DNA of 64,000 nucleotides from contig NZ_JAQTLY010000005.1 of NCBI RefSeq assembly GCF_028714655.1, forward strand, positions 1-64,000, in the 5' to 3' direction. This DNA comes from Sulfurimonas sp. Lineage in GTDB: Bacteria > Campylobacterota > Campylobacteria > Campylobacterales > Sulfurimonadaceae. The position numbers were made by a program, and so were the translations under genes. The notes beneath the pieces were generated by a model. That model was not told the origin of the DNA and searched no databases. It worked only from the letters and a program-made list of their open reading frames with translations. Shown in pieces: positions 21,318 to 31,556 of this stretch (position 1 is its first letter; each line of letters opens with the position of its first letter).

Positions 21318-24300
21318 ATGAAAAAAATATCCGTTTTTGCTATGCTATTTTTCTTTTTTACATACAGTTATGCAAATGAAAAAATTAGATTCGGTGTTTT
21401 TGCCTACAAAGGGGTGGAAAATACCCGCAGACAGTATCAGCCGCTTGTTGACTATCTAAATGAAAAACTCGACAATCGTGTAGTTTTAGAGCTTTTAACC
21501 ATAGACGAAATTGATAGAAAGATTAAAAACCGTGAGCTTGATATTATTACCACAAATCCGGCTCATTTTCTGCAGGTAAGACAAAGCTATCAACTAAGCG
21601 GAGCCATCGCAACATTGGAAGGTTTTAAAAACGGGATTTCTACAAACAAACTTGCCGGCGTTATCATAACAAAAAAAGATAGCGGGATAAAAACTCTCCA
21701 AGATTTAAAAAACAAGACTATCTCTACCCCGAGCAAAAAACATATGGGTGCGTTTAGAGTTCAAGCTTACGAACTCTATCTAAATAATATCGATATTTCA
21801 AAGATAAGTAAAAATATTATAGAAACCAAAGGCTCTCATCAGGAGACGGTATATACCGTTTTAGACGGCAGAGCAGATGTAGGTTTTATACGAGACGGCA
21901 TTTTAGAAGAGATGATTGCTTCTAATGAGATAAAAGGTGATGACATTTACATCATAAACGAACGAACAAACTCCGATCACCCTTACAAAATCTCAACCAG
22001 ACTCTATCCGGAGTGGCCTGTTTTTTCTCTGCCGCATGTCGATGAAGAGAGTGTTAAATCATTTATAGCAGCTCTTTTTTCTCTTCAACCTACAAAATCA
22101 ATCGAAAAAGAGGGAATTTACGGTTATACATTCCCCGCCGACTATCTTGAAGTAGAAGAGTTGTCCCGCGCTCTTAGAATTCCTCCTTTTGACAAAGCGC
22201 CAAAAATAACCTATATGGATATTATAAACCAATATAAAAAAGAGATTTTTGCTATTTTTATTCTCTTGGTGTTAGGATTGCTCTACTACATAATAGAGAC
22301 AAAGAGAAAAAACTTCCTCTCATCGCTCCTATCTAATATGGGAGAGGGTGTTTATGGGGTTGACGGGGATGGAAACTGTACTTGGATAAATAAAAAAGCG
22401 CTTGAGATGTTGGGTTACAGCGAAAAAGAGGCTTTATACAAAGACCAACATCTGCTTTTTCATCATCGTAAACCGACAAATGAGGAGTATGATGCACAAG
22501 AATGTCCTATATATCTAACACAACAAGACGGAAAAACCAGAGAGTGCGAAGAGTGGTTTATAAAAAAAGACGGCTCATTTTTTCCTGTAAATCTTACGGT
22601 GGCATCAACGAGCAACGGCGGCGGTATCGTAATATTTCGTGATATTAGCGAATTTATAAAAAAAGAGAATGAACTGAAAAAAAGCGAAAGCCTATTTAGA
22701 ATGCTCTTTGAATTTCTTCCTGATCCGGTAATTATAACCGATCCGCAAACAAAGCTTCCGTATATGTTCAACAAAGCTGCACACGAACTGCTCAGATACA
22801 GTGCAGAAGAGTTTGAAAAACTCTCTATAAAAGATTATGAAGCTATCGAAGACCCACAGGAAATTCAAAAACATATTGAGACTATATTTTCAAACGGAGC
22901 AGGCACCTTCGAGACTAAACATCGTACAAAAGACGGAGTGCTGCTAGACATTGCCGTATCCGTACAAATTATCTATCTACAAGAAAAACCGTATCTTTTA
23001 AGTGTTCACAGAGATATAACCCAAACAAAAAAGTACGAAAGGGATCTTCGTTTCCAAAAACAGCGGCTTAATGCCATTATAGAGGGAACGAATGTCGGTA
23101 CATGGGAGTGGGATATTCAACTCGGCGATGTGATATATAACCAAAGATGGGCGGAGATAATCGGCTATACACTTGAAGAGCTTTTTCCAATATCCATAGA
23201 TACATGGATAGAAAACACTCACCCAGATGATTTGTCGGAGTCAAAAAAAGCATTAGAGAGGCATTTTAGCGGTGAGGCGGATTACTATATGTGTGAAATC
23301 CGAATGAGACACAAAGACGGCCACTGGGTTTGGGTTTTAAACAGAGGGAAAGTCTCGGAGTGGAGCGAAGAGGGCAAACCGCTTGTTATCTCTGGAACAA
23401 GTCAAGATGTAACTGCTAAAAAATTGGCTCAAGAGGCACTCAAGATGGAGAGGGATCTCTTCTCAAGCGGTCCCGTTATCACAATAGAGTGGGAAGTATC
23501 GCAAAATTGGCCTATTCGATATGTTTCTAAAAATGTAACGGCGATTTTAGGTTACACACCGGAAGAGATGACGGATGAATCATTTTTATACACAGACCTG
23601 CTTCACCCTGATGATTTAGATGAATGTCTAAAAGAGGTGATTAACAACATAAAAAAGCATATAGATACTTATGAGCAGTCATATCGTTTAAGATTGAAAG
23701 ACGGCAGCTATAGATGGTTTTACGATTTTACGCGCGTTGTAAGAGACAAAAATGGAAATGCCATCTCAATTCACGGGTACTTATTTGATCAAACTCAACT
23801 TAAAAATGCGCAAGAGGAGCTTAAAAATAGCGAAAAACTTCTAAATCTTTTCTTTCAGCAGTCAATATACGGGTTTTTCTTTATGATGCTGGACGAGCCT
23901 ATTGAGTGGAATGATTCTATAGATAAAGAAAAAGCTCTTGATTACATATTTGAACATCAGCATGTTACAAAAATAAATGATGCTATGCTAGCTCAGTATG
24001 GAGCAAAAAGGGAAGACTTTTTAGGTTTTACTCCGAGAGATTTTTTTGAGCATAACATAGAAGATGGGCGTAGAATATGGAGAGGACTTTTTGATAGAGG
24101 CTCGTGGCATGTCGATACGAATGAACAAAAATTTGACGGTACCGATATGGTTATAAACGGAGATTATATCTGCTTGTATGATGATCAGAACAGGATTACC
24201 GGTCATTTTGGAGTGCAAAGAGAGGTAACGGAAGAGATAAGAGATAAAAAAGCATTAAAAGAGGCAAAAGAGCAAGCAGAGAAAGCAAATATCGCAAAAA

Positions 24301-26036
24301 GTGAGTTTTTGGCAAATATGAGCCATGAAATAAGAACACCGATGAATGCCATTTTGGGACTCAGCGAGCTTATGTCGGATACAAATCTTGATGATAAGCA
24401 AAAAGATTATCTGTACAAAATCAACGGTTCGTCAAAAATGCTCTTAGGAATCATCAACGATATTTTGGATTATTCAAAGATAGAAGCAAATAAACTTGAA
24501 CTTGAACATAAAGAGTTTGATCTTGGAAATGTACTGTCGCAACTAAAAGCGCTTTTTATGCAAAATGCAACAGGCAAAGGGTTGGAACTGCTTTTTGAAC
24601 TTAAAAACAGCGTTCCTAAAATGATAGTTGGAGATGAGCTTAGAATAAATCAAGTTTTAGTAAATCTACTAAGCAATGCACTGAAATTTACCGCTAAAGG
24701 AAGTGTAACGGTATCAATAGAGCTTAAAAAGAGAGAAGAGTTTGAAGCAGTTATAGGTTTTAGCGTTAGCGATACGGGAGTCGGTATAAAAAATGAGCAG
24801 ATTTCAAACCTCTTTACTCCGTTTTCTCAAGCCGATAACTCAATTACGCGTAAATACGGCGGCACCGGACTTGGTCTCTCAATCTCCACAAAGCTTGTTG
24901 AAGCAATGGGCGGAAAACTATCTGCCAATAGCAAACTAGGGATCGGTTCAACCTTTAGTTTTGACATAAAAACAGACATCCTCTCATGGGAACAAAATGA
25001 TTTAAAGATATCGGATGACCTAAACAAAACTATCTCAAATAAGGCGCATAACTACCCTGATTTAAGTCATCTAAATATTTTACTGGTAGAGGATAACGAG
25101 ATAAACCAAGAGATAGCTCTTGCCATACTAAAAAGAGTAAAAATTAATGCAGTAGTTGCAAATAACGGTAAAGAAGCAGTTAGTATATTTTTATCAAAGC
25201 CTAATTTTTTCAATATCATACTTATGGATTTACAGATGCCGGTTATGAGCGGATATGAAGCTGCGACTATCATTAGAGAACATGATAAAAAAATTCCTAT
25301 TATTGCTCTAACGGCGGCCGCTATGGTAGAAGATAGAGACAAAGTGTTAAAAGTCGGTATGAATGACCATCTTGCAAAACCGATTGACAGCGATGAGATG
25401 CTTCAAACCGTAGGAAAATGGTGTGCCGTATCGATAACCGCTCAATCAAAAGAACAAAACAGACAAGAAGATGATACGGTTCTTGATATGGAGCATGCTC
25501 TGGGTATCGTAAACTCAAACCAAGAACTGCTAAATAAAATCTTATCTAGGTTTTTGATAGAGCTTGAGAGTGATTTTAACAATCTGCCAGAGTTGATATC
25601 TCAAGATGAGCCTTCCGCAAAAGCACTTATCCATGCTCTAAAAGGCGTTAGCGGCAATATCGGGGCAAAAGCTCTGGCATCAATATGCAGTATGATAAAC
25701 GAAAGTTACAAAAGAGGCGATAAGATTTCTGAAGAAAATATAGATAATCTAAAGACGGCAATGGATGAACTAAAGGCAAAAATCAAATCAATACATCCGG
25801 ATATACACACGGCGTTACAAAAAACAGAACTAAATGGCGAGGAGTTGAAAAATTTATTTCAAGAAACGCTAAAAGATGTTAAAATCGGAACAATGATACA
25901 GATGCATATACAACAGATACTTTTTGATGCTCTTAAAGATAGGGTAAATAGTTACGAACTAGAGTCGTGGGCAAATGCTATGGATGAGTTTGACTACGAC
26001 AGAGCTTATGATATTATGAAAGAGTGGAATATATGA
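21318..26036 (+). CDS. Hybrid sensor histidine kinase with PhnD-like periplasmic sensor, several PAS domains, receiver and Hpt
   Basis: A 1572-aa membrane sensor. After a signal peptide a periplasmic binding-protein-like domain (about 20-295) resembles the phosphate/phosphonate PhnD type. One membrane segment follows (about 307-325), then about five PAS/PAC units (330-985). The kinase core has His1003 in MSHEIRTPMNAIL and an ATPase domain (G2 box GGTGLGLSIS). The receiver has Asp1304 in LMDLQMPVMSG, and the C-terminal Hpt has His1439 in HALKGVSGN. The layout matches BvgS/EvgS-type phosphorelays with H-D-H steps in one chain. The likely output is the diguanylate cyclase regulator that overlaps its end. 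Confidence 0.9.
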   Translation: MKKISVFAMLFFFFTYSYANEKIRFGVFAYKGVENTRRQYQPLVDYLNEKLDNRVVLELLTIDEIDRKIKNRELDIITTNPAHFLQVRQSYQLSGAIATLEGFKNGISTNKLAGVIITKKDSGIKTLQDLKNKTISTPSKKHMGAFRVQAYELYLNNIDISKISKNIIETKGSHQETVYTVLDGRADVGFIRDGILEEMIASNEIKGDDIYIINERTNSDHPYKISTRLYPEWPVFSLPHVDEESVKSFIAALFSLQPTKSIEKEGIYGYTFPADYLEVEELSRALRIPPFDKAPKITYMDIINQYKKEIFAIFILLVLGLLYYIIETKRKNFLSSLLSNMGEGVYGVDGDGNCTWINKKALEMLGYSEKEALYKDQHLLFHHRKPTNEEYDAQECPIYLTQQDGKTRECEEWFIKKDGSFFPVNLTVASTSNGGGIVIFRDISEFIKKENELKKSESLFRMLFEFLPDPVIITDPQTKLPYMFNKAAHELLRYSAEEFEKLSIKDYEAIEDPQEIQKHIETIFSNGAGTFETKHRTKDGVLLDIAVSVQIIYLQEKPYLLSVHRDITQTKKYERDLRFQKQRLNAIIEGTNVGTWEWDIQLGDVIYNQRWAEIIGYTLEELFPISIDTWIENTHPDDLSESKKALERHFSGEADYYMCEIRMRHKDGHWVWVLNRGKVSEWSEEGKPLVISGTSQDVTAKKLAQEALKMERDLFSSGPVITIEWEVSQNWPIRYVSKNVTAILGYTPEEMTDESFLYTDLLHPDDLDECLKEVINNIKKHIDTYEQSYRLRLKDGSYRWFYDFTRVVRDKNGNAISIHGYLFDQTQLKNAQEELKNSEKLLNLFFQQSIYGFFFMMLDEPIEWNDSIDKEKALDYIFEHQHVTKINDAMLAQYGAKREDFLGFTPRDFFEHNIEDGRRIWRGLFDRGSWHVDTNEQKFDGTDMVINGDYICLYDDQNRITGHFGVQREVTEEIRDKKALKEAKEQAEKANIAKSEFLANMSHEIRTPMNAILGLSELMSDTNLDDKQKDYLYKINGSSKMLLGIINDILDYSKIEANKLELEHKEFDLGNVLSQLKALFMQNATGKGLELLFELKNSVPKMIVGDELRINQVLVNLLSNALKFTAKGSVTVSIELKKREEFEAVIGFSVSDTGVGIKNEQISNLFTPFSQADNSITRKYGGTGLGLSISTKLVEAMGGKLSANSKLGIGSTFSFDIKTDILSWEQNDLKISDDLNKTISNKAHNYPDLSHLNILLVEDNEINQEIALAILKRVKINAVVANNGKEAVSIFLSKPNFFNIILMDLQMPVMSGYEAATIIREHDKKIPIIALTAAAMVEDRDKVLKVGMNDHLAKPIDSDEMLQTVGKWCAVSITAQSKEQNRQEDDTVLDMEHALGIVNSNQELLNKILSRFLIELESDFNNLPELISQDEPSAKALIHALKGVSGNIGAKALASICSMINESYKRGDKISEENIDNLKTAMDELKAKIKSIHPDIHTALQKTELNGEELKNLFQETLKDVKIGTMIQMHIQQILFDALKDRVNSYELESWANAMDEFDYDRAYDIMKEWNI

Positions 26037-26947
26037 GAGAAAATGACTATATACCGACTATTTTAATAGTCGATGATATGGCTGCGAATATTGCTATTTT
26101 ATCGGATTTACTTCAGAGTAGCTATAAAATTAAAATAGCAAAAAACGGTCAAAGAGCACTTGATATAGCAAGAGGCAAAGAGAAGCCGGATCTCATTCTT
26201 TTGGATATAGAGATGCCGCAAATGAGCGGATATGAAGTTTGTAAAAAATTAAAAGATTCTTCAGACACCAGAAACATCCCCGTTATATTTGTAACTGCAA
26301 AAAATGATACGACGGACGAAGAGTATGGCTTAAAGTTAGGAGCGATTGACTACATCAAAAAACCGTTTCATCCTGCAATTATAAAAATAAGAGTAAGAAA
26401 TCATATAAATCTAAAACTCAAAAGCGATAAACTAGAAGAACTTTCAATGTGTGACAGCCTTACGGGCATTCCAAACAGAAGATACTTTGACGAGACTCTT
26501 GAGAGGAAGCATAGAGAAGTCTTAAGAGATAAAAAAAGTCTCGCCGTTATAATGATAGACATAGACTTCTTTAAACTCTACAACGACAACTACGGACACT
26601 GGAAGGGAGACGAATGTCTTGCAAAAGTAGCCGTAACACTAAGAAAAACTCTAAAACGCTCAACGGATACGGTTTCAAGATACGGCGGTGAGGAATTTGT
26701 TATTTTATTAAAAGATATAGATAAAGAGGGAGCAAAAAGAGTTGCAGAATCTTTAGTAAACGCAATTGCCGAGCTTAAAATCCCTCATGAGTATTCGCCT
26801 GTTACAAATTTTGTAACAATAAGCGTTGGAGTTGCTATAAAAGAGGAGAATGAATCCATCTCTAAAGAAGAGCTGCTAAAAATTGCAGACGATGAACTCT
26901 ACCGCGCCAAAGAGAGCGGCAGAAACAGATTTTGCGCGGGGTTTTAA
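26033..26947 (+). CDS. Response regulator with GGDEF diguanylate cyclase domain
   Basis: Makes c-di-GMP when phosphorylated (inferred). Receiver 1-125 has Asp58 in [11 protein letters not shown]. The GGDEF domain (about 140-300) has the active-site motif GGEEF at 218-222. The start is taken as the ATG at 26033, whose ATGA overlaps the kinase stop; a GTG at 26024 is also possible. It ends in a 4-bp overlap with convergent thiG. The adjacent phosphorelay kinase is the obvious phosphate donor. Confidence 0.92.
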
Positions 26948-27723
26948 AACTGTATCAACCCATTCATAGGCGAAGAGGCGGTAGCATAAGGGCGTTTTGC
27001 AATTCTTCCCGAGAGATAGCTCATCCGCCCTGCTATTACTGCATGTTTCATCGCCTCTGCCATCATTATAGGATTTTGCGCTCCGGCAATGGCAGTATTT
27101 GTTAAAACTCCATCAGCTCCAAGTTCCATAGCATAAGCGGCATCGCTTGCACATCCTATTCCCGCATCTACTATTACGGGGACGCTCACGGCTTCACGAA
27201 TAAAGACGATGTTGTAAGGATTTTGAATTCCGAGTCCGCTCCCTATAGGAGCTGCAAGAGGCATTATCGCGTGCGCTCCCGCATCTTCAAGTCTCTTTGC
27301 CATAATCGGATCATCCGAAGTGTAAGCCATAATCGTAAATCCCTCACGAGCTAAAATCTCACAAGCTTTTATAGTCTCAAGCACATCGGGATAGAGAGTT
27401 TTTTGAGTATCTCCAATAACTTCTAGTTTGATTAAGTCAATTCCCGTAGCTTCACGGGTGAGCCTAAAAGTGGTTATAGCCTCCTCTGCCGTAGTACATC
27501 CTGCCGAGTTTGGCAAAAATTTTACATTCGTACCTGCAAATGTATCTCTTAGATTTTCTTTATCGGGGTCTGTTATATTTAAACGACGAACCGCAACAGT
27601 AATAAGTTCGCTTCCGCTAACTAAAGTTGCCTCTTTTGTGGTTAGAAAATCTTTGTATTTTCCGCTTCCGACTATCAAGCGAGAGCCAAGTTCATATTTT
27701 CCGATTTTTAGTATATCTTTCAT
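26944..27723 (-). CDS. thiG: Thiazole synthase
   Basis: Builds the thiazole phosphate part of thiamine from DXP, ThiS thiocarboxylate and dehydroglycine. The roughly 259-aa TIM-barrel has [20 protein letters not shown], the catalytic Lys in [11 protein letters not shown], and the phosphate-binding [16 protein letters not shown]. The start is set at ATG 27723 because AGGAAA lies 9 nt upstream; an upstream in-frame ATG at 27738 has no such site. No other thi genes are adjacent. Confidence 0.95.
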
Positions 27724-27760
27724 TTCGTTTTTCCTCATATATTATTAAATTTAATAAGCT

Positions 27761-27826: not shown

Positions 27827-28339
27827 TTATTGAAATAACCATTTATAAACTCCAAGTCGTTGCATTCTATTTATCTCTGCACTGTTGCATTGAAGATGTA
27901 TATTATCCCACTTTGAGTTATCAGCAGGACAATCTTCAATCAAAAGCTTACCTATATCCTCAAAATTGCTTTTATTAAAAAACTTTTTCAAAGATTCACT
28001 TTCTTTATGGTTTACACCCAACAAAAAAACGCGATTAGCATATTGAGTGGGTACCAAGTTGTGGAACTTTTCCATTTTCTGATTAAAAAAATCCGATCCA
28101 TCTGATGTTTTGTCATCAAAATCCATAAGCAGCAATATATTACATGCCTCATATTTTTCTAAAAGATGTATATTGTTTTTCAGGCTTTCAAATACCTTAT
28201 CCCACCCACCACATGGATTTTTTATATCAAAAACATTACTTTTAATGTTTGACAAAATCTGTATTCCATTTATGATTTCCCGATAAGGTTTGTCTTCTAA
28301 AAGAACAACCATATGCTCTTTATAACGGTTTACACCCAT
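27827..28339 (-). CDS. Small Toprim-like protein paired with an ATPase
   Basis: A 170-aa protein with no family I can name with certainty. The N-terminus has VVLLEDKPYREIINGI with Glu15 after a hydrophobic strand. Residues 68-76 read ILLLMDFDD with Asp73 and Asp75. Glu followed by a DxD after a second strand is the core of Toprim nuclease domains (OLD, topoisomerases), so a metal-dependent nuclease is plausible. It begins directly after the stop codon of the ATPase gene with no gap. ATPase-plus-Toprim pairs (OLD/Gabija, PARIS) are known anti-phage systems; this pair might be one. Confidence 0.6.
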   Translation of the reverse strand: MGVNRYKEHMVVLLEDKPYREIINGIQILSNIKSNVFDIKNPCGGWDKVFESLKNNIHLLEKYEACNILLLMDFDDKTSDGSDFFNQKMEKFHNLVPTQYANRVFLLGVNHKESESLKKFFNKSNFEDIGKLLIEDCPADNSKWDNIHLQCNSAEINRMQRLGVYKWLFQ

Positions 28340-29446
28340 CTATCTATCCAACTCACCATTGTCATACGCATCGACAACTGTTGAGCTTTTATAAGAAATT
28401 TCTTCTAAAATATTAATTCTTGTTGGTGATAAATGTGAGTCTCTACTAAGAACAAAAATATTATGGTTAGAAAAACTATTGATAACTCTCTCATTATGAG
28501 ATGTTAAAAGTAGCTGTCCAAGACTTGCTGAAGATTCAAATGTCTTCCTAAATTCTATAATCATCTGTTTTAATTCTACCAAACCTATAAAATTATCTGG
28601 CTCATCCCATATACAAAGTAAATTTGGATTATTTGCTTGAGCTGCCAAAATAGTTGCTGATAGGAAAAATATCTTTTCTCCGTCAGATAATTGTTCAAAA
28701 TCAAAAGAAACTGCACTACTATCTTGCTTAAATATAAAACTCAATCCCTTATCATCTCTCCCAAGGATTTCAAATTTAAAAAGTTGTAAATCAGGCATTT
28801 TTGATTTTAAAAAATCATACATTTGCACATAAAGACTTGGATTTGAAGACAATAACCATCTAGCAAAATCTATAATATTTGATCCATCTCTTAATAATTT
28901 AGGGTTTTCAATCTTTGATAATGAAGAAAAATATTTTGGAAATGGTGATAAAAAGATAATAGTTTTTAACCATTCTCTAAAAAGTGCGATAGGATCATTA
29001 TGCGTCTTAGCTGACACCAATGAAAGTCCAACATGGTGCCAATCAAGTAAAAAGTGTGCACTATCATTAAGTACTGTTTGCCCACCGTCTCTTGTGAATA
29101 CTATTGTTTGTCCAGCAGAAAGTTTTTCACTCTTTATTTTAGGAGCGTTAAAATTTTCAGGAAATTCAATCATTAAAATATAATGGAATTTTTGTTTATC
29201 TAATTCTACTTCCAATTCAAGGTGTATAGGAGTTTTTTTATTACCAAAACTAAAGCTTTCAATAGATATAAGTTCTTCTAAACTAGTTACACCTTGTCCT
29301 ATTTTTTGAAAAATTTCAATTACTTCAAAAACTGTTGTTTTTCCAGAGCCATTTTTACCCAACAAAAAAACAGAATTAAGATTCTTGAAATCTAATTCAA
29401 AATTTTGAAGACATTTAAAATTATGTGCATACAACCTCTTAATCAT
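28340..29446 (-). CDS. ABC-type/AAA_21-like ATPase (SMC-RecF fold)
   Basis: A 368-aa soluble ATPase. Walker A GKNGSGKT is at 30-37, the signature LSDGEK at about 252, Walker B LLCIWDEPD at about 280, and a His switch in LLTSHNE. The order matches AAA_21/OLD-like ATPases. It overlaps nnrD by 4 nt (ATGA) and is followed at once by the Toprim-like gene, so all are co-translated. Such ATPases often detect phage or DNA ends and license a partner nuclease. A role in defence is an inference; repair is an alternative. Confidence 0.82.
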   Translation of the reverse strand: MIKRLYAHNFKCLQNFELDFKNLNSVFLLGKNGSGKTTVFEVIEIFQKIGQGVTSLEELISIESFSFGNKKTPIHLELEVELDKQKFHYILMIEFPENFNAPKIKSEKLSAGQTIVFTRDGGQTVLNDSAHFLLDWHHVGLSLVSAKTHNDPIALFREWLKTIIFLSPFPKYFSSLSKIENPKLLRDGSNIIDFARWLLSSNPSLYVQMYDFLKSKMPDLQLFKFEILGRDDKGLSFIFKQDSSAVSFDFEQLSDGEKIFFLSATILAAQANNPNLLCIWDEPDNFIGLVELKQMIIEFRKTFESSASLGQLLLTSHNERVINSFSNHNIFVLSRDSHLSPTRINILEEISYKSSTVVDAYDNGELDR

Positions 29447-30819
29447 TTTGTTTCCTCTAATCTACTTATTTCATCTATCAAGTCATCGGGCGTGAGTGAA
29501 AAATCAGCACCTTTGTAATTTAGCGCAAGTTTAGCATGTGCTAATGAACCGTTTATTGCCGCATCCAAACACTCATAACCTTGAGCCAAAAGAGAGGCGA
29601 TAAGACCGCTTAAAACATCTCCGCTTCCGCCTTTTGCAAGTGATGGAGTTCCGTGCGGATTTATAAAAAAGTTATCATTTTTACCGATGATGACATTTGC
29701 ACCTTTTAAAAGAAGTACTATATGCGGAAATTTTTTACAAAACGACTCGGCATATTTAAACCGCTCCTTTTGTAACTCATCAGCGGATATATCTGCAACT
29801 TTCGTAATTTTTAAAAGAGAAACAAACTCTTTTGGATGCGGGGTTATAACTACATTTTCTCTTTTTAATATCTCTAAAACGATAGGCATACAAAAAATAT
29901 CCGCATCGGCAACAAGAGAAAGAGAATTGTCTAAAAATTTGGCAAGTTCTATCTCGCTAAACTCTACGCCAAGACCCATTCCCAAAGCCAAAGCAGTTGC
30001 TCCTTTTGGCACTTCGTGAGAGTACATCAAGGTATGCGGTATCTCTATCTCTTCAAATCCTACAAGCGTTACCAAACCGCTTCCAAATCTAAATGCAGAT
30101 AGCGCACTCATAATGCTAGCACCGCTTTTTTCTCCCGATGCAATCGCTAAATGTCCGTAGCTTCCTTTATGAGAATCTTTTTTTGTTCTGTTTGGAAGTT
30201 TTAAATCCTCCAAATCAAGAACTCTCCAGTTGCTCTCTTTTTCGTAAATTTCTCTGCTCACACCCAAATCAAGGACTTTTATATCCCCGACCATATCTTT
30301 TGCACTATCCAAAAACATACTCTTTTTCAAAGCACCCATTGTTAATGTTACATCGGCTCTAAAAGCAAAAGCCGACGGAATATCGCATGCAATTTTAAAA
30401 GCATTTACGGAGTTCATTTTATCAATAAGCAGCGAAAGTTCATCGCTTAAACAGCCGCTATATCCGGTTCCTACGATTGCATCGACTAAAACATCGCAAC
30501 TCTCAAGCTCCGTAATCTCTTTAACACCTATGCTAAAAGCACGGTTTTGTTGTAAAAGCGCCATCTTTGAAGCAGGTTTTTTTGCCCTAAGTATAGATAT
30601 ATCGTAACTTTTGTGCAGAAGCCTTGCAAGTGCCGTCCCGTCCGCCCCGTTATTGCCGCTTCCGCATACCACGACTATTTTTGAGTTTTTCTCAAAGTTA
30701 TCGCGAATGTAGCAAGCCATGCCATCTGCCGCATGCTCCATCAAAATATCTTCGTTTAAAAAAAACTTCTCATAGCATCTTCTATCTAAAGATGCCACCT
30801 CATCAAAAAGTTTTTGCAT
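29443..30819 (-). CDS. nnrD: Bifunctional NAD(P)H-hydrate repair enzyme (epimerase + dehydratase)
   Basis: Repairs damaged NAD(P)H hydrates. The 458-aa fusion has an N-terminal YjeF epimerase domain (about 1-200, GSGNNGADGTALARLL, DAIVGTGYSG) and a C-terminal ADP/ATP-dependent dehydratase of the ribokinase-like fold (about 215-455). The latter shows KGSYGHLAIASG, VITPHPKEF and the catalytic GTPSLAKGGSGDVLSG. It follows the P-loop gene by 2 nt and overlaps the ATPase gene by 4 nt. Confidence 0.95.
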   Translation of the reverse strand: MQKLFDEVASLDRRCYEKFFLNEDILMEHAADGMACYIRDNFEKNSKIVVVCGSGNNGADGTALARLLHKSYDISILRAKKPASKMALLQQNRAFSIGVKEITELESCDVLVDAIVGTGYSGCLSDELSLLIDKMNSVNAFKIACDIPSAFAFRADVTLTMGALKKSMFLDSAKDMVGDIKVLDLGVSREIYEKESNWRVLDLEDLKLPNRTKKDSHKGSYGHLAIASGEKSGASIMSALSAFRFGSGLVTLVGFEEIEIPHTLMYSHEVPKGATALALGMGLGVEFSEIELAKFLDNSLSLVADADIFCMPIVLEILKRENVVITPHPKEFVSLLKITKVADISADELQKERFKYAESFCKKFPHIVLLLKGANVIIGKNDNFFINPHGTPSLAKGGSGDVLSGLIASLLAQGYECLDAAINGSLAHAKLALNYKGADFSLTPDDLIDEISRLEETK

Positions 30820-30821
30820 AA

Positions 30822-31556
30822 CTACACTTCAAAAACATACTCGTCTATGTGAACAATATTGCTCTTTATATCGTTAAACAGAAGCGTCTTATAGTTTGTT
30901 CTATACTGGTAGAAAAATCTGTTTTTCGGTAATTTTTTTAAATTTGCCGTGTTAAAATACTCAAAAGTTGAACATTTTCCAAGGTATAAAAAAGTAAAGA
31001 GCAGTTTTATCTGCGGGTTTTCAAATGTCGAGTGAGGCTGTGTTAAAAAAGTCAACCCGTACTTCTTTAAATTTAAAAAGTTTAACATATAGAGCAAAAA
31101 GTCTTCAAATTTCGTATAAAAACCGTTTAAATTTTCGATATCGTGAAAAAAGTAGTAATAATTATCTAAAAGTCCTCTTATCTGAAGAGTTTCCGTCAAT
31201 TTACTTTTTATATCTCTTTTATTTGAAAAGTAAGCCGGATCAACTGCCATATAGATATGCTGTTTATCATTGACTAGTTTATTAAACTCTTCTTGAAACT
31301 TCTCGCTCTCATCAAATCTTATATAGTTAAAGTGTTCATCTTTATATCTCAACTCTATATTGTCCACATCCGAGTTGGAAAAATCAAGATACAGTGTTGC
31401 AACATTGTTGTCGATTACATAATTTCTTATCTTGCACGCAAGATTGGTTTTTCCCGCCCCCTCTTCTGCCAAGATTAAGGTGTTAAAATATAAAACTCTC
31501 TCTTCAACTTTTAGTGTATTTATGCTGCTTACATATTTTCCTAGTACATCTCTCAT
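30822..31556 (-). CDS. P-loop ATP-binding protein of unknown function
   Basis: A 244-aa soluble protein. The Walker A motif AEEGAGKT lies at 30-37; a strand with VATLYLDFSN and a region YYYFFHDIENL may supply the Walker B aspartate. It resembles small AAA/archaeal-type ATPases but I cannot place it in a named family. It heads the operon with nnrD, the ABC-type ATPase and the Toprim-like gene. Its upstream region is shared with divergent kpsF. Confidence 0.65.
   Translation of the reverse strand: MRDVLGKYVSSINTLKVEERVLYFNTLILAEEGAGKTNLACKIRNYVIDNNVATLYLDFSNSDVDNIELRYKDEHFNYIRFDESEKFQEEFNKLVNDKQHIYMAVDPAYFSNKRDIKSKLTETLQIRGLLDNYYYFFHDIENLNGFYTKFEDFLLYMLNFLNLKKYGLTFLTQPHSTFENPQIKLLFTFLYLGKCSTFEYFNTANLKKLPKNRFFYQYRTNYKTLLFNDIKSNIVHIDEYVFEV

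What the first reader, a model, noticed from the sequence alone, without database searches (positions are those of the whole stretch)
27827..29446. ABC-type ATPase and Toprim-like pair inside the nnrD operon: possible defence system
An ATPase with complete Walker A, signature, Walker B and His-switch is followed with zero spacing by a 170-aa protein with a Glu (15) and DxD (73, 75) pattern. ATPase/Toprim partnerships define several anti-phage systems (OLD/Gabija, PARIS). The small size of the second protein fits none that I can name, and coupling to a housekeeping repair gene by ATGA overlap is unusual.
Basis: partly seen in the sequence, partly recalled or inferred. Interest (0 to 1): 0.65.

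Follow-up and report, generated by a model that had tools for sequence, protein, structure and literature searches.

The report
Lone ATPase–Toprim-like two-gene cassette
A rare, horizontally acquired pair of genes, an SMC/Rad50-type ATPase and a small Toprim-like protein with no entry in the family databases searched, sits between two housekeeping genes of one Sulfurimonas-like bacterium and most probably acts as a small anti-phage or stress-triggered nuclease system; no function has been tested.

Summary
The pair is real. It lies on the minus strand: ATPase 28340-29446, then the 170-aa protein (P170) at 27827-28339. It is accessory: 1 of 135 congeneric genomes and 2 of 397 genomes of the phylum have P170, and in 17 fetched congeners thiG follows nnrD directly. 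The ATGA overlap with nnrD is a by-product of insertion; nnrD gained four codons. About 30 further loci, mostly cyanobacterial plus some Acidobacteriota, carry the same ATPase-then-P170 order, usually with an ATGA overlap. P170 matches no Pfam, NCBIfam or PADLOC model, but keeps E15 and D73 in 25 of 25 members and D75 in 24. AlphaFold2 (pTM 0.81) gives the Toprim strand/helix order with these residues at the catalytic places. Foldseek ranks an OLD Toprim domain first in the PDB and primase/Toprim proteins near the top among viral models, none at E<=1e-3. The ATPase is closest to those paired with DUF4276 small Toprims and to PADLOC HEC-01A/AbiLi. Neighbours are mostly housekeeping genes, not defence islands; several copies are decayed. 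Best reading: an ATPase-controlled small Toprim nuclease, working like PARIS/AbiL, but not a proven member of either. Anti-phage role is inferred only.

The parts
28340..29446 (-). 368-aa ABC-type (SMC/Rad50-like, AAA_21/AAA_15) ATPase
   Evidence: ORF; Pfam; PADLOC HEC-01A 1.9e-23 and AbiLi 7.4e-22; Foldseek PtuA/Rad50; 64% identity to Sulfurovum and 35-41% to cyanobacterial/Acidobacteriota partners
29336..29359 (-). Walker A GKNGSGKT (residues 30-37)
   Evidence: translation; G30, N32, G33, G35, K36 invariant in 25 homologues
28676..28690 (-). ABC signature LSDGE (253-257)
   Evidence: invariant in 25 homologues
28601..28621 (-). Walker B LLCIWDE (276-282)
   Evidence: C278, W280, D281 and E282 invariant
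28496..28498 (-). His-switch H317 (TSHN)
   Evidence: T315-N318 invariant
27827..28339 (-). 170-aa small Toprim-like protein P170 (no family model)
   Evidence: ORF; no Pfam/NCBIfam/PADLOC hit; AF2 pLDDT 81.6, pTM 0.81; Foldseek
28295..28297 (-). E15, predicted Toprim glutamate after strand 1
   Evidence: invariant in 25 homologues; follows strand 9-14 in the model
28115..28123 (-). D73-F-D75, predicted Toprim DxD after strand 3
   Evidence: D73 25/25 and D75 24/25; end of strand 66-73
29443..29457 (-). Left junction: nnrD tail with four extra codons (EETK) and new stop overlapping the ATPase start
   Evidence: comparison with L004-L009, L012 and L013
27739..27826 (-). Right junction: intergenic stretch between P170 and thiG, keeping a thiG leader
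   Evidence: no direct or inverted repeat of 11 nt or more
29443..30819 (-). nnrD (bifunctional NAD(P)HX epimerase/dehydratase), host gene upstream; context only
   Evidence: Pfam; NCBIfam; found in 50 of 60 congeners
26944..27738 (-). thiG, host gene downstream; context only (named from the sequence, no family model confirmed it here)
   Evidence: adjacent to nnrD in most congeners

Best explanation
This is a self-contained two-gene accessory system that entered the nnrD-thiG junction of one Sulfurimonas-like lineage by horizontal transfer. The SMC/Rad50-like ATPase would dimerise on ATP and act as sensor and scaffold. The small Toprim-like protein, made by coupled translation directly after it, would be the effector: a metal-dependent nuclease using E15 and D73/D75, released or switched on when the ATPase senses phage or foreign nucleic acid, cleaving RNA (tRNA as in PARIS) or DNA and stopping phage growth or the cell. 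Shown here: the pair, its linkage, conserved ATPase and E/DxD residues, accessory distribution, insertion site, predicted Toprim-like order. Inferred: nuclease activity, ATPase control, trigger, target, and anti-phage role.
For: Pairing ATPase-then-P170 in about 30 loci of three phyla, mostly with a 4-nt ATGA overlap. E15 and D73 invariant, D75 in 24/25. AF2 model with order strand-helix-strand-helix-strand-helix-strand, E15 and DxD after strands 1 and 3. Foldseek: OLD Toprim domain first in the PDB (E 0.01, prob 0.95), primase/DnaG Toprim/Toprim/RloB models among the viral hits. Sub-threshold HMM hits of single members include HEC-01B, mad4, DUF4276, OLD-like_TOPRIM_1. ATPase profile scores DUF4276-paired ATPases highest, then RloB-paired ones; PADLOC HEC-01A, AbiLi. 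Accessory: 1/135 genus, 2/397 phylum, 24/339 Cyanobacteria, 4/199 in the phylum of a Bryobacterales genome; empty sites; cassette G+C below the flanks in 22/22 loci; decayed copies; one pair between IS-like genes and one ATPase on a conjugative plasmid. Literature: separate AAA + TOPRIM_OLD/RloB pairs tested as toxin/neutraliser and linked to AbiL (PMC10440598); AriB is a two-metal Toprim tRNase, E26A inactive (PMC12409363).
Against: No Foldseek match reaches E<=1e-3 and the TM-scores of the Toprim hits are about 0.4. Profile-profile comparison of P170 with DUF4276 and RloB is weak (probability 0.3-3.7%) against controls at 0.07-0.6%. Neighbours are mainly housekeeping genes, not defence genes. 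No hit in phage records and no relative confirmed in IMG/VR. One member (L104) has lost D75.
Confidence: 0.6

Rival explanations
1. Toxin-antitoxin form: P170 is toxic by itself and the ATPase neutralises it, as reported for AAA:TOPRIM_OLD pairs; phage interference with the ATPase frees the toxin.
For: AAA (D29):TOPRIM_OLD pairs were tested in toxicity-neutralisation assays (PMC10440598); gene pairing and translational overlap.
Against: L117, L126 and L110 keep an open P170 frame with E15 and DxD although the ATPase is truncated, interrupted or gone. This fits an effector that is inert without its ATPase better, but expression in those genomes is unknown, L110 has no start codon, and the L126 stop could be a sequencing error.
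Confidence: 0.22
2. A chromosomal housekeeping function (DNA repair or RNA processing, RecF/RecR-like or RNase M5-like) kept by some lineages, not defence.
For: Housekeeping neighbours; several cyanobacterial relatives keep the pair at the same site (murA: L102, L110, L118; acidPPc/GGPPS: L103, L109), which suggests vertical keeping. The OLD-family ATPase Cran1 of an archaeon acts in cell cycle, not defence (PMC12796447 abstract).
Against: Absent from about 99% of congeners, clean empty sites, low G+C, decayed copies: the marks of a dispensable, transferred module.
Confidence: 0.13
3. P170 is not a Toprim protein but another Rossmann-like alpha/beta protein, and E15/DxD have a structural or different metal-binding role.
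For: Foldseek E-values above 1e-3; lumazine-synthase-like and other Rossmann-like folds also appear in the PDB list; hhalign not significant.
Against: Viral-library ranking rich in primase/Toprim/topoisomerase/RloB models; conserved residues at the Toprim positions; several of the weak HMM hits are to Toprim-type families that partner ATPases.
Confidence: 0.15
4. Chance neighbours, or fragments of a once larger gene.
For: None found.
Against: Linkage, order and spacing kept in about 30 loci from three phyla.
Confidence: 0.01

Closest known systems
HEC-01 (PADLOC candidate system) and other ATPase + DUF4276 small-Toprim pairs
   Same: Two genes, AAA_21-type ATPase first, about 200-aa E/DxD protein second, usually overlapping or abutting. 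ATPase is a near full-length match to HEC-01A (1.9e-23); P170-family members hit three HEC-01B models at E 0.002-0.006 and DUF4276 once at 0.003.
   Different: P170 of the window matches none of these models; profile comparison with DUF4276 is not significant. P170 is shorter, with its own conserved GW, RVFxLG and C-x6-W blocks.
AbiL (AbiLi/AbiLii; RloA/RloB)
   Same: Bicistronic ATPase + Toprim-type effector; ATPase matches AbiLi at 7.4e-22. AbiL is described as an abortive infection system (PMC10440598).
   Different: P170 does not match RloB (PF13707); ATPase similarity to RloB-paired ATPases is lower than to DUF4276-paired ones.
PARIS (AriA/AriB)
   Same: Separate ATPase and Toprim nuclease; AriB is a two-metal tRNase inactivated by E26A (PMC12409363), a Glu that would correspond to E15 by position (inference).
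   Different: ATPase hits AriA models less well than HEC-01A/AbiLi; P170 has no DUF4435/AriB match.
OLD / Gabija GajA
   Same: ATPase coupled to Toprim nuclease; top PDB hit of P170 is an OLD Toprim domain (6nk8).
   Different: There the two domains are fused in one protein; no helicase partner (GajB) here.
Septu / retron PtuA
   Same: Best Foldseek match of the ATPase (8ee4, 3e-12).
   Different: The partner of PtuA is an HNH nuclease (PtuB), not a Toprim.

Membership tests
Toprim fold | Alternating strand/helix core with Glu after strand 1 and DxD after strand 3 | tested here: met
   AF2 order and residue positions; conservation
Toprim fold | Significant structural match to a known Toprim domain | tested here: inconclusive
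   Best PDB hit is OLD Toprim, E 0.01, prob 0.95, TM 0.43; viral Toprim/primase models E 0.0045-0.06; none <=1e-3
Toprim fold | Significant sequence-profile match | tested here: not met
   No Pfam Toprim family for the window protein; best for any of 25 members: DUF4276 0.003, OLD-like_TOPRIM_1 0.081
HEC-01 | HEC-01A ATPase | tested here: inconclusive
   1.9e-23, 81 bits over residues 2-337; PADLOC's own score/coverage cut-offs were not applied
HEC-01 | HEC-01B partner | tested here: not met
   Window P170: no hit at E<=5; other members 0.0022-0.0064 only
AbiL / RloAB | RloB-type (PF13707) second protein | tested here: not met
   No Pfam hit; hhalign probability 0.5%
PARIS | AriB/DUF4435 second protein | tested here: not met
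   No Pfam or PADLOC hit
OLD / Gabija | ATPase fused to Toprim (plus GajB helicase) | tested here: not met
   Two separate ORFs, neighbours nnrD and thiG
ABC-type ATPase (SMC/Rad50/AAA_21) | Walker A, signature, Walker B, His-switch and fold | tested here: met
Anti-phage defence system | Accessory distribution | tested here: met
   1/135, 2/397, 24/339 and 4/199 genomes; empty sites
Anti-phage defence system | Location in defence islands | tested here: not met
   112 nearest neighbours are mainly housekeeping; few PADLOC hits, several visibly housekeeping proteins
Anti-phage defence system | Protects against phage | not testable with these tools
   Needs experiment

The most novel reading that the evidence does not exclude
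P170 defines a new, very compact stand-alone Toprim nuclease family, activated by its own ATPase, forming an undescribed two-gene immune system that travels alone and settles between housekeeping genes instead of in defence islands, so that island-based searches would miss it.
Probability: 0.45. Interest if true: 0.55.

Novelty: new variant of a known kind. Interest (0 to 1): 0.4.

Why it matters
If it works as proposed, it adds an uncatalogued small Toprim effector family to the ATPase-plus-Toprim immune systems (PARIS, AbiL, OLD/Gabija) and shows that such modules can be carried as solitary two-gene cassettes outside defence islands, where neighbourhood-based discovery would miss them. It gives one clean comparison: near relatives with nnrD directly followed by thiG, against this genome with the cassette.

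Tried and rejected
Functional link to nnrD repair: rejected, because in congeners thiG follows nnrD and the overlap comes from insertion. Membership in Gabija/OLD, PARIS, AbiL or Septu: rejected on the second protein or on architecture. Direct sequence relation of P170 to DUF4276 or RloB by hhalign: not significant, although some of those alignments place the DxD motif, and the RloB one also the Glu, in the expected register. Search for P170 in phages, plasmids and viral contigs with the window protein: nothing; the Sulfurovum protein found one cyanobacterial plasmid, which opened the cyanobacterial family. Terminal repeats marking a mobile element: none within either window junction. DUF4276 and HEC-01 literature: no paper in the held library.

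Full report
OBSERVATION. Both ORFs are where the finding says, on the minus strand. The ATPase (28340-29446) has Walker A GKNGSGKT, signature LSDGE, Walker B LLCIWDE and His-switch TSHN; the key residues are invariant in an alignment of 25 homologues. P170 (27827-28339) begins on the base after the ATPase stop. E15 and D73 are invariant in 25 family members and D75 is kept in 24. The nnrD stop overlaps the ATPase start by four bases.

INSERTION, NOT COUPLING. nnrD is found in 50 of 60 congeners. In 17 of the 19 fetched congener loci (L004-L022 without L016 and L020) thiG follows nnrD after roughly 5-136 bases; in L016 the gap is about 484 bases and in L020 thiG is absent from the fetched stretch. 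In the closest relatives whose junction was read NnrD ends ...IS(R/K)L*; in the window it reads ...ISRLEETK*, the extra four codons being made of the ribosome-binding region of the ATPase gene. A thiG leader is retained at the right end. The cassette has 29.8% G+C against 38.3% in the flanks; it is lower than the flanks in all 22 loci measured, although the neighbouring conserved ORF244 is also low (31%). No repeats of 11 nt or more lie within either window junction. So the 'unusual coupling to a housekeeping repair gene' is the mark of an insertion.

DISTRIBUTION. P170 occurs in 1 of 135 genomes of the genus and 2 of 397 of the phylum; the second is a Sulfurovum MAG (L002/L055, 55% identity for P170 and 64% for the ATPase), at another site beside a phosphatase-like ORF. 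With a profile, 24 of 339 Cyanobacteria and 4 of 199 genomes of the phylum of a Bryobacterales genome have it. One pair lies on a cyanobacterial plasmid next to IS-like genes, and an ATPase with no P170 found after it lies on a conjugative Dolichospermum plasmid. ATPase and P170 are paired in that order in almost every locus, typically with the 4-nt ATGA overlap; the Sulfurimonas-like and Sulfurovum versions have zero spacing.

DECAY. Several loci hold remains: ATPase truncated (L114, L117, L118, L124), interrupted by a stop (L126), or missing (L110, L119); P170 truncated (L118, L119, L123, L124). Some of these could be assembly or contig effects. Such loss is usual for dispensable modules. 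In L117 and L126, P170 is open with E15 and DxD although the ATPase is broken; this leans against a toxin that needs the ATPase as antitoxin, but expression there is unknown.

WHAT P170 IS. No Pfam, NCBIfam or PADLOC model matches the window protein. AlphaFold2 on ten family members gives mean pLDDT 81.6 and pTM 0.81, with strands 9-14, 37-39, 66-73, 104-109 and helices between; E15 follows strand 1 and D73-F-D75 ends strand 3. This is the Toprim order (established knowledge). Foldseek against the PDB ranks the Toprim region of an OLD protein (6nk8) first, E 0.01, probability 0.95, TM 0.43. Against viral models it ranks a primase/helicase first and a DnaG TOPRIM domain third, with Toprim, topoisomerase 2 and an RloB-like protein further down. 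No hit reaches 1e-3. Weak HMM hits of single family members include HEC-01B, mad4, DUF4276 and OLD-like_TOPRIM_1, among unrelated weak ones. Profile-profile comparison with cyanobacterial DUF4276 and RloB sets is not significant (probability 0.3-3.7%, controls 0.07-0.6%). I therefore call it Toprim-like, moderately supported at fold level, not shown by sequence.

WHAT THE ATPASE IS. It is an SMC/Rad50-type ABC ATPase: Foldseek best PtuA (3e-12) and Rad50, PADLOC best HEC-01A (1.9e-23) and AbiLi (7.4e-22). Its profile scores ATPases next to DUF4276 genes highest (up to 55 bits) and those next to RloB lower (up to 29 bits). Both of those families show the same two-gene layout, ATPase first, small protein second.

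MECHANISM. Separate AAA + TOPRIM_OLD/RloB gene pairs have been tested as toxin and neutraliser, and RloB/AbiLii belongs to the AbiL abortive-infection system (PMC10440598). AriB of PARIS is a two-metal Toprim tRNase whose E26A mutant is inactive (PMC12409363). By analogy the ATPase senses infection and P170 cleaves nucleic acid. This is inference. The trigger, the target and the choice between activation and neutralisation are open.

AGAINST DEFENCE. The nearest genes in 30 loci are mainly housekeeping (groEL, murA, clpB, IF-2, HSP70, polyprenyl synthetase and others). Of 112 neighbours few hit PADLOC models at 1e-15, and several of those hits are likely housekeeping proteins such as DNA polymerase I and cellular AAA ATPases (the tool gives tallies, not names, so this is partly inference). 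Related cyanobacteria sometimes share the site, which suggests long vertical keeping.

VERDICT. A real, rare, horizontally moved two-gene cassette with an uncatalogued small Toprim-like partner: a new variant of a known kind (ATPase + Toprim systems). Defence is the best guess, at about 0.6.

Noticed in passing
30822-31556 (-): ORF244, a conserved P-loop-like protein upstream of nnrD in most congeners (61-94% identity), with only a weak DUF87 hit and a weak mad8 hit (0.0024); function unknown, part of the ancestral locus, not of the cassette.
   Followed up: partly
L053, L099, L101, L103, L105, L107, L109, L111, L113, L115, L116, L125, L127, L128 (upstream of the ATPase start): A loosely conserved leader of about 30 nt, roughly TTCACTTTCCANTNCTNGGAATTGTTTTNTT, directly before the ATPase ATG in cyanobacterial copies; absent in the window. 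It may be a translational or regulatory element that travels with the cassette.
   Followed up: partly
L121 9779-9790 and 11424-11435: A perfect 12-nt inverted repeat (CGAGGAAACTGC / GCAGTTTCCTCG) brackets the acidobacterial cassette just outside both genes; possibly a trace of mobility, possibly chance.
   Followed up: no
L131-L187 (cyanobacterial DUF4276 and RloB loci): Many cyanobacterial genomes carry several different two-gene ATPase + small Toprim-type pairs (up to 7 DUF4276 matches in one genome).
   Followed up: partly
L104 9845-10333: P170 with D75 changed to V beside an open but longer (407-codon frame) ATPase: a natural candidate for a catalytically dead effector.
   Followed up: no
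21318-26036 (+): 1572-aa protein with a solute-binding-like N-terminus, several PAS-like stretches, histidine kinase, receiver and Hpt-like parts (read from the sequence only), overlapping a diguanylate-cyclase-like response regulator at 26024-26947.
   Followed up: no
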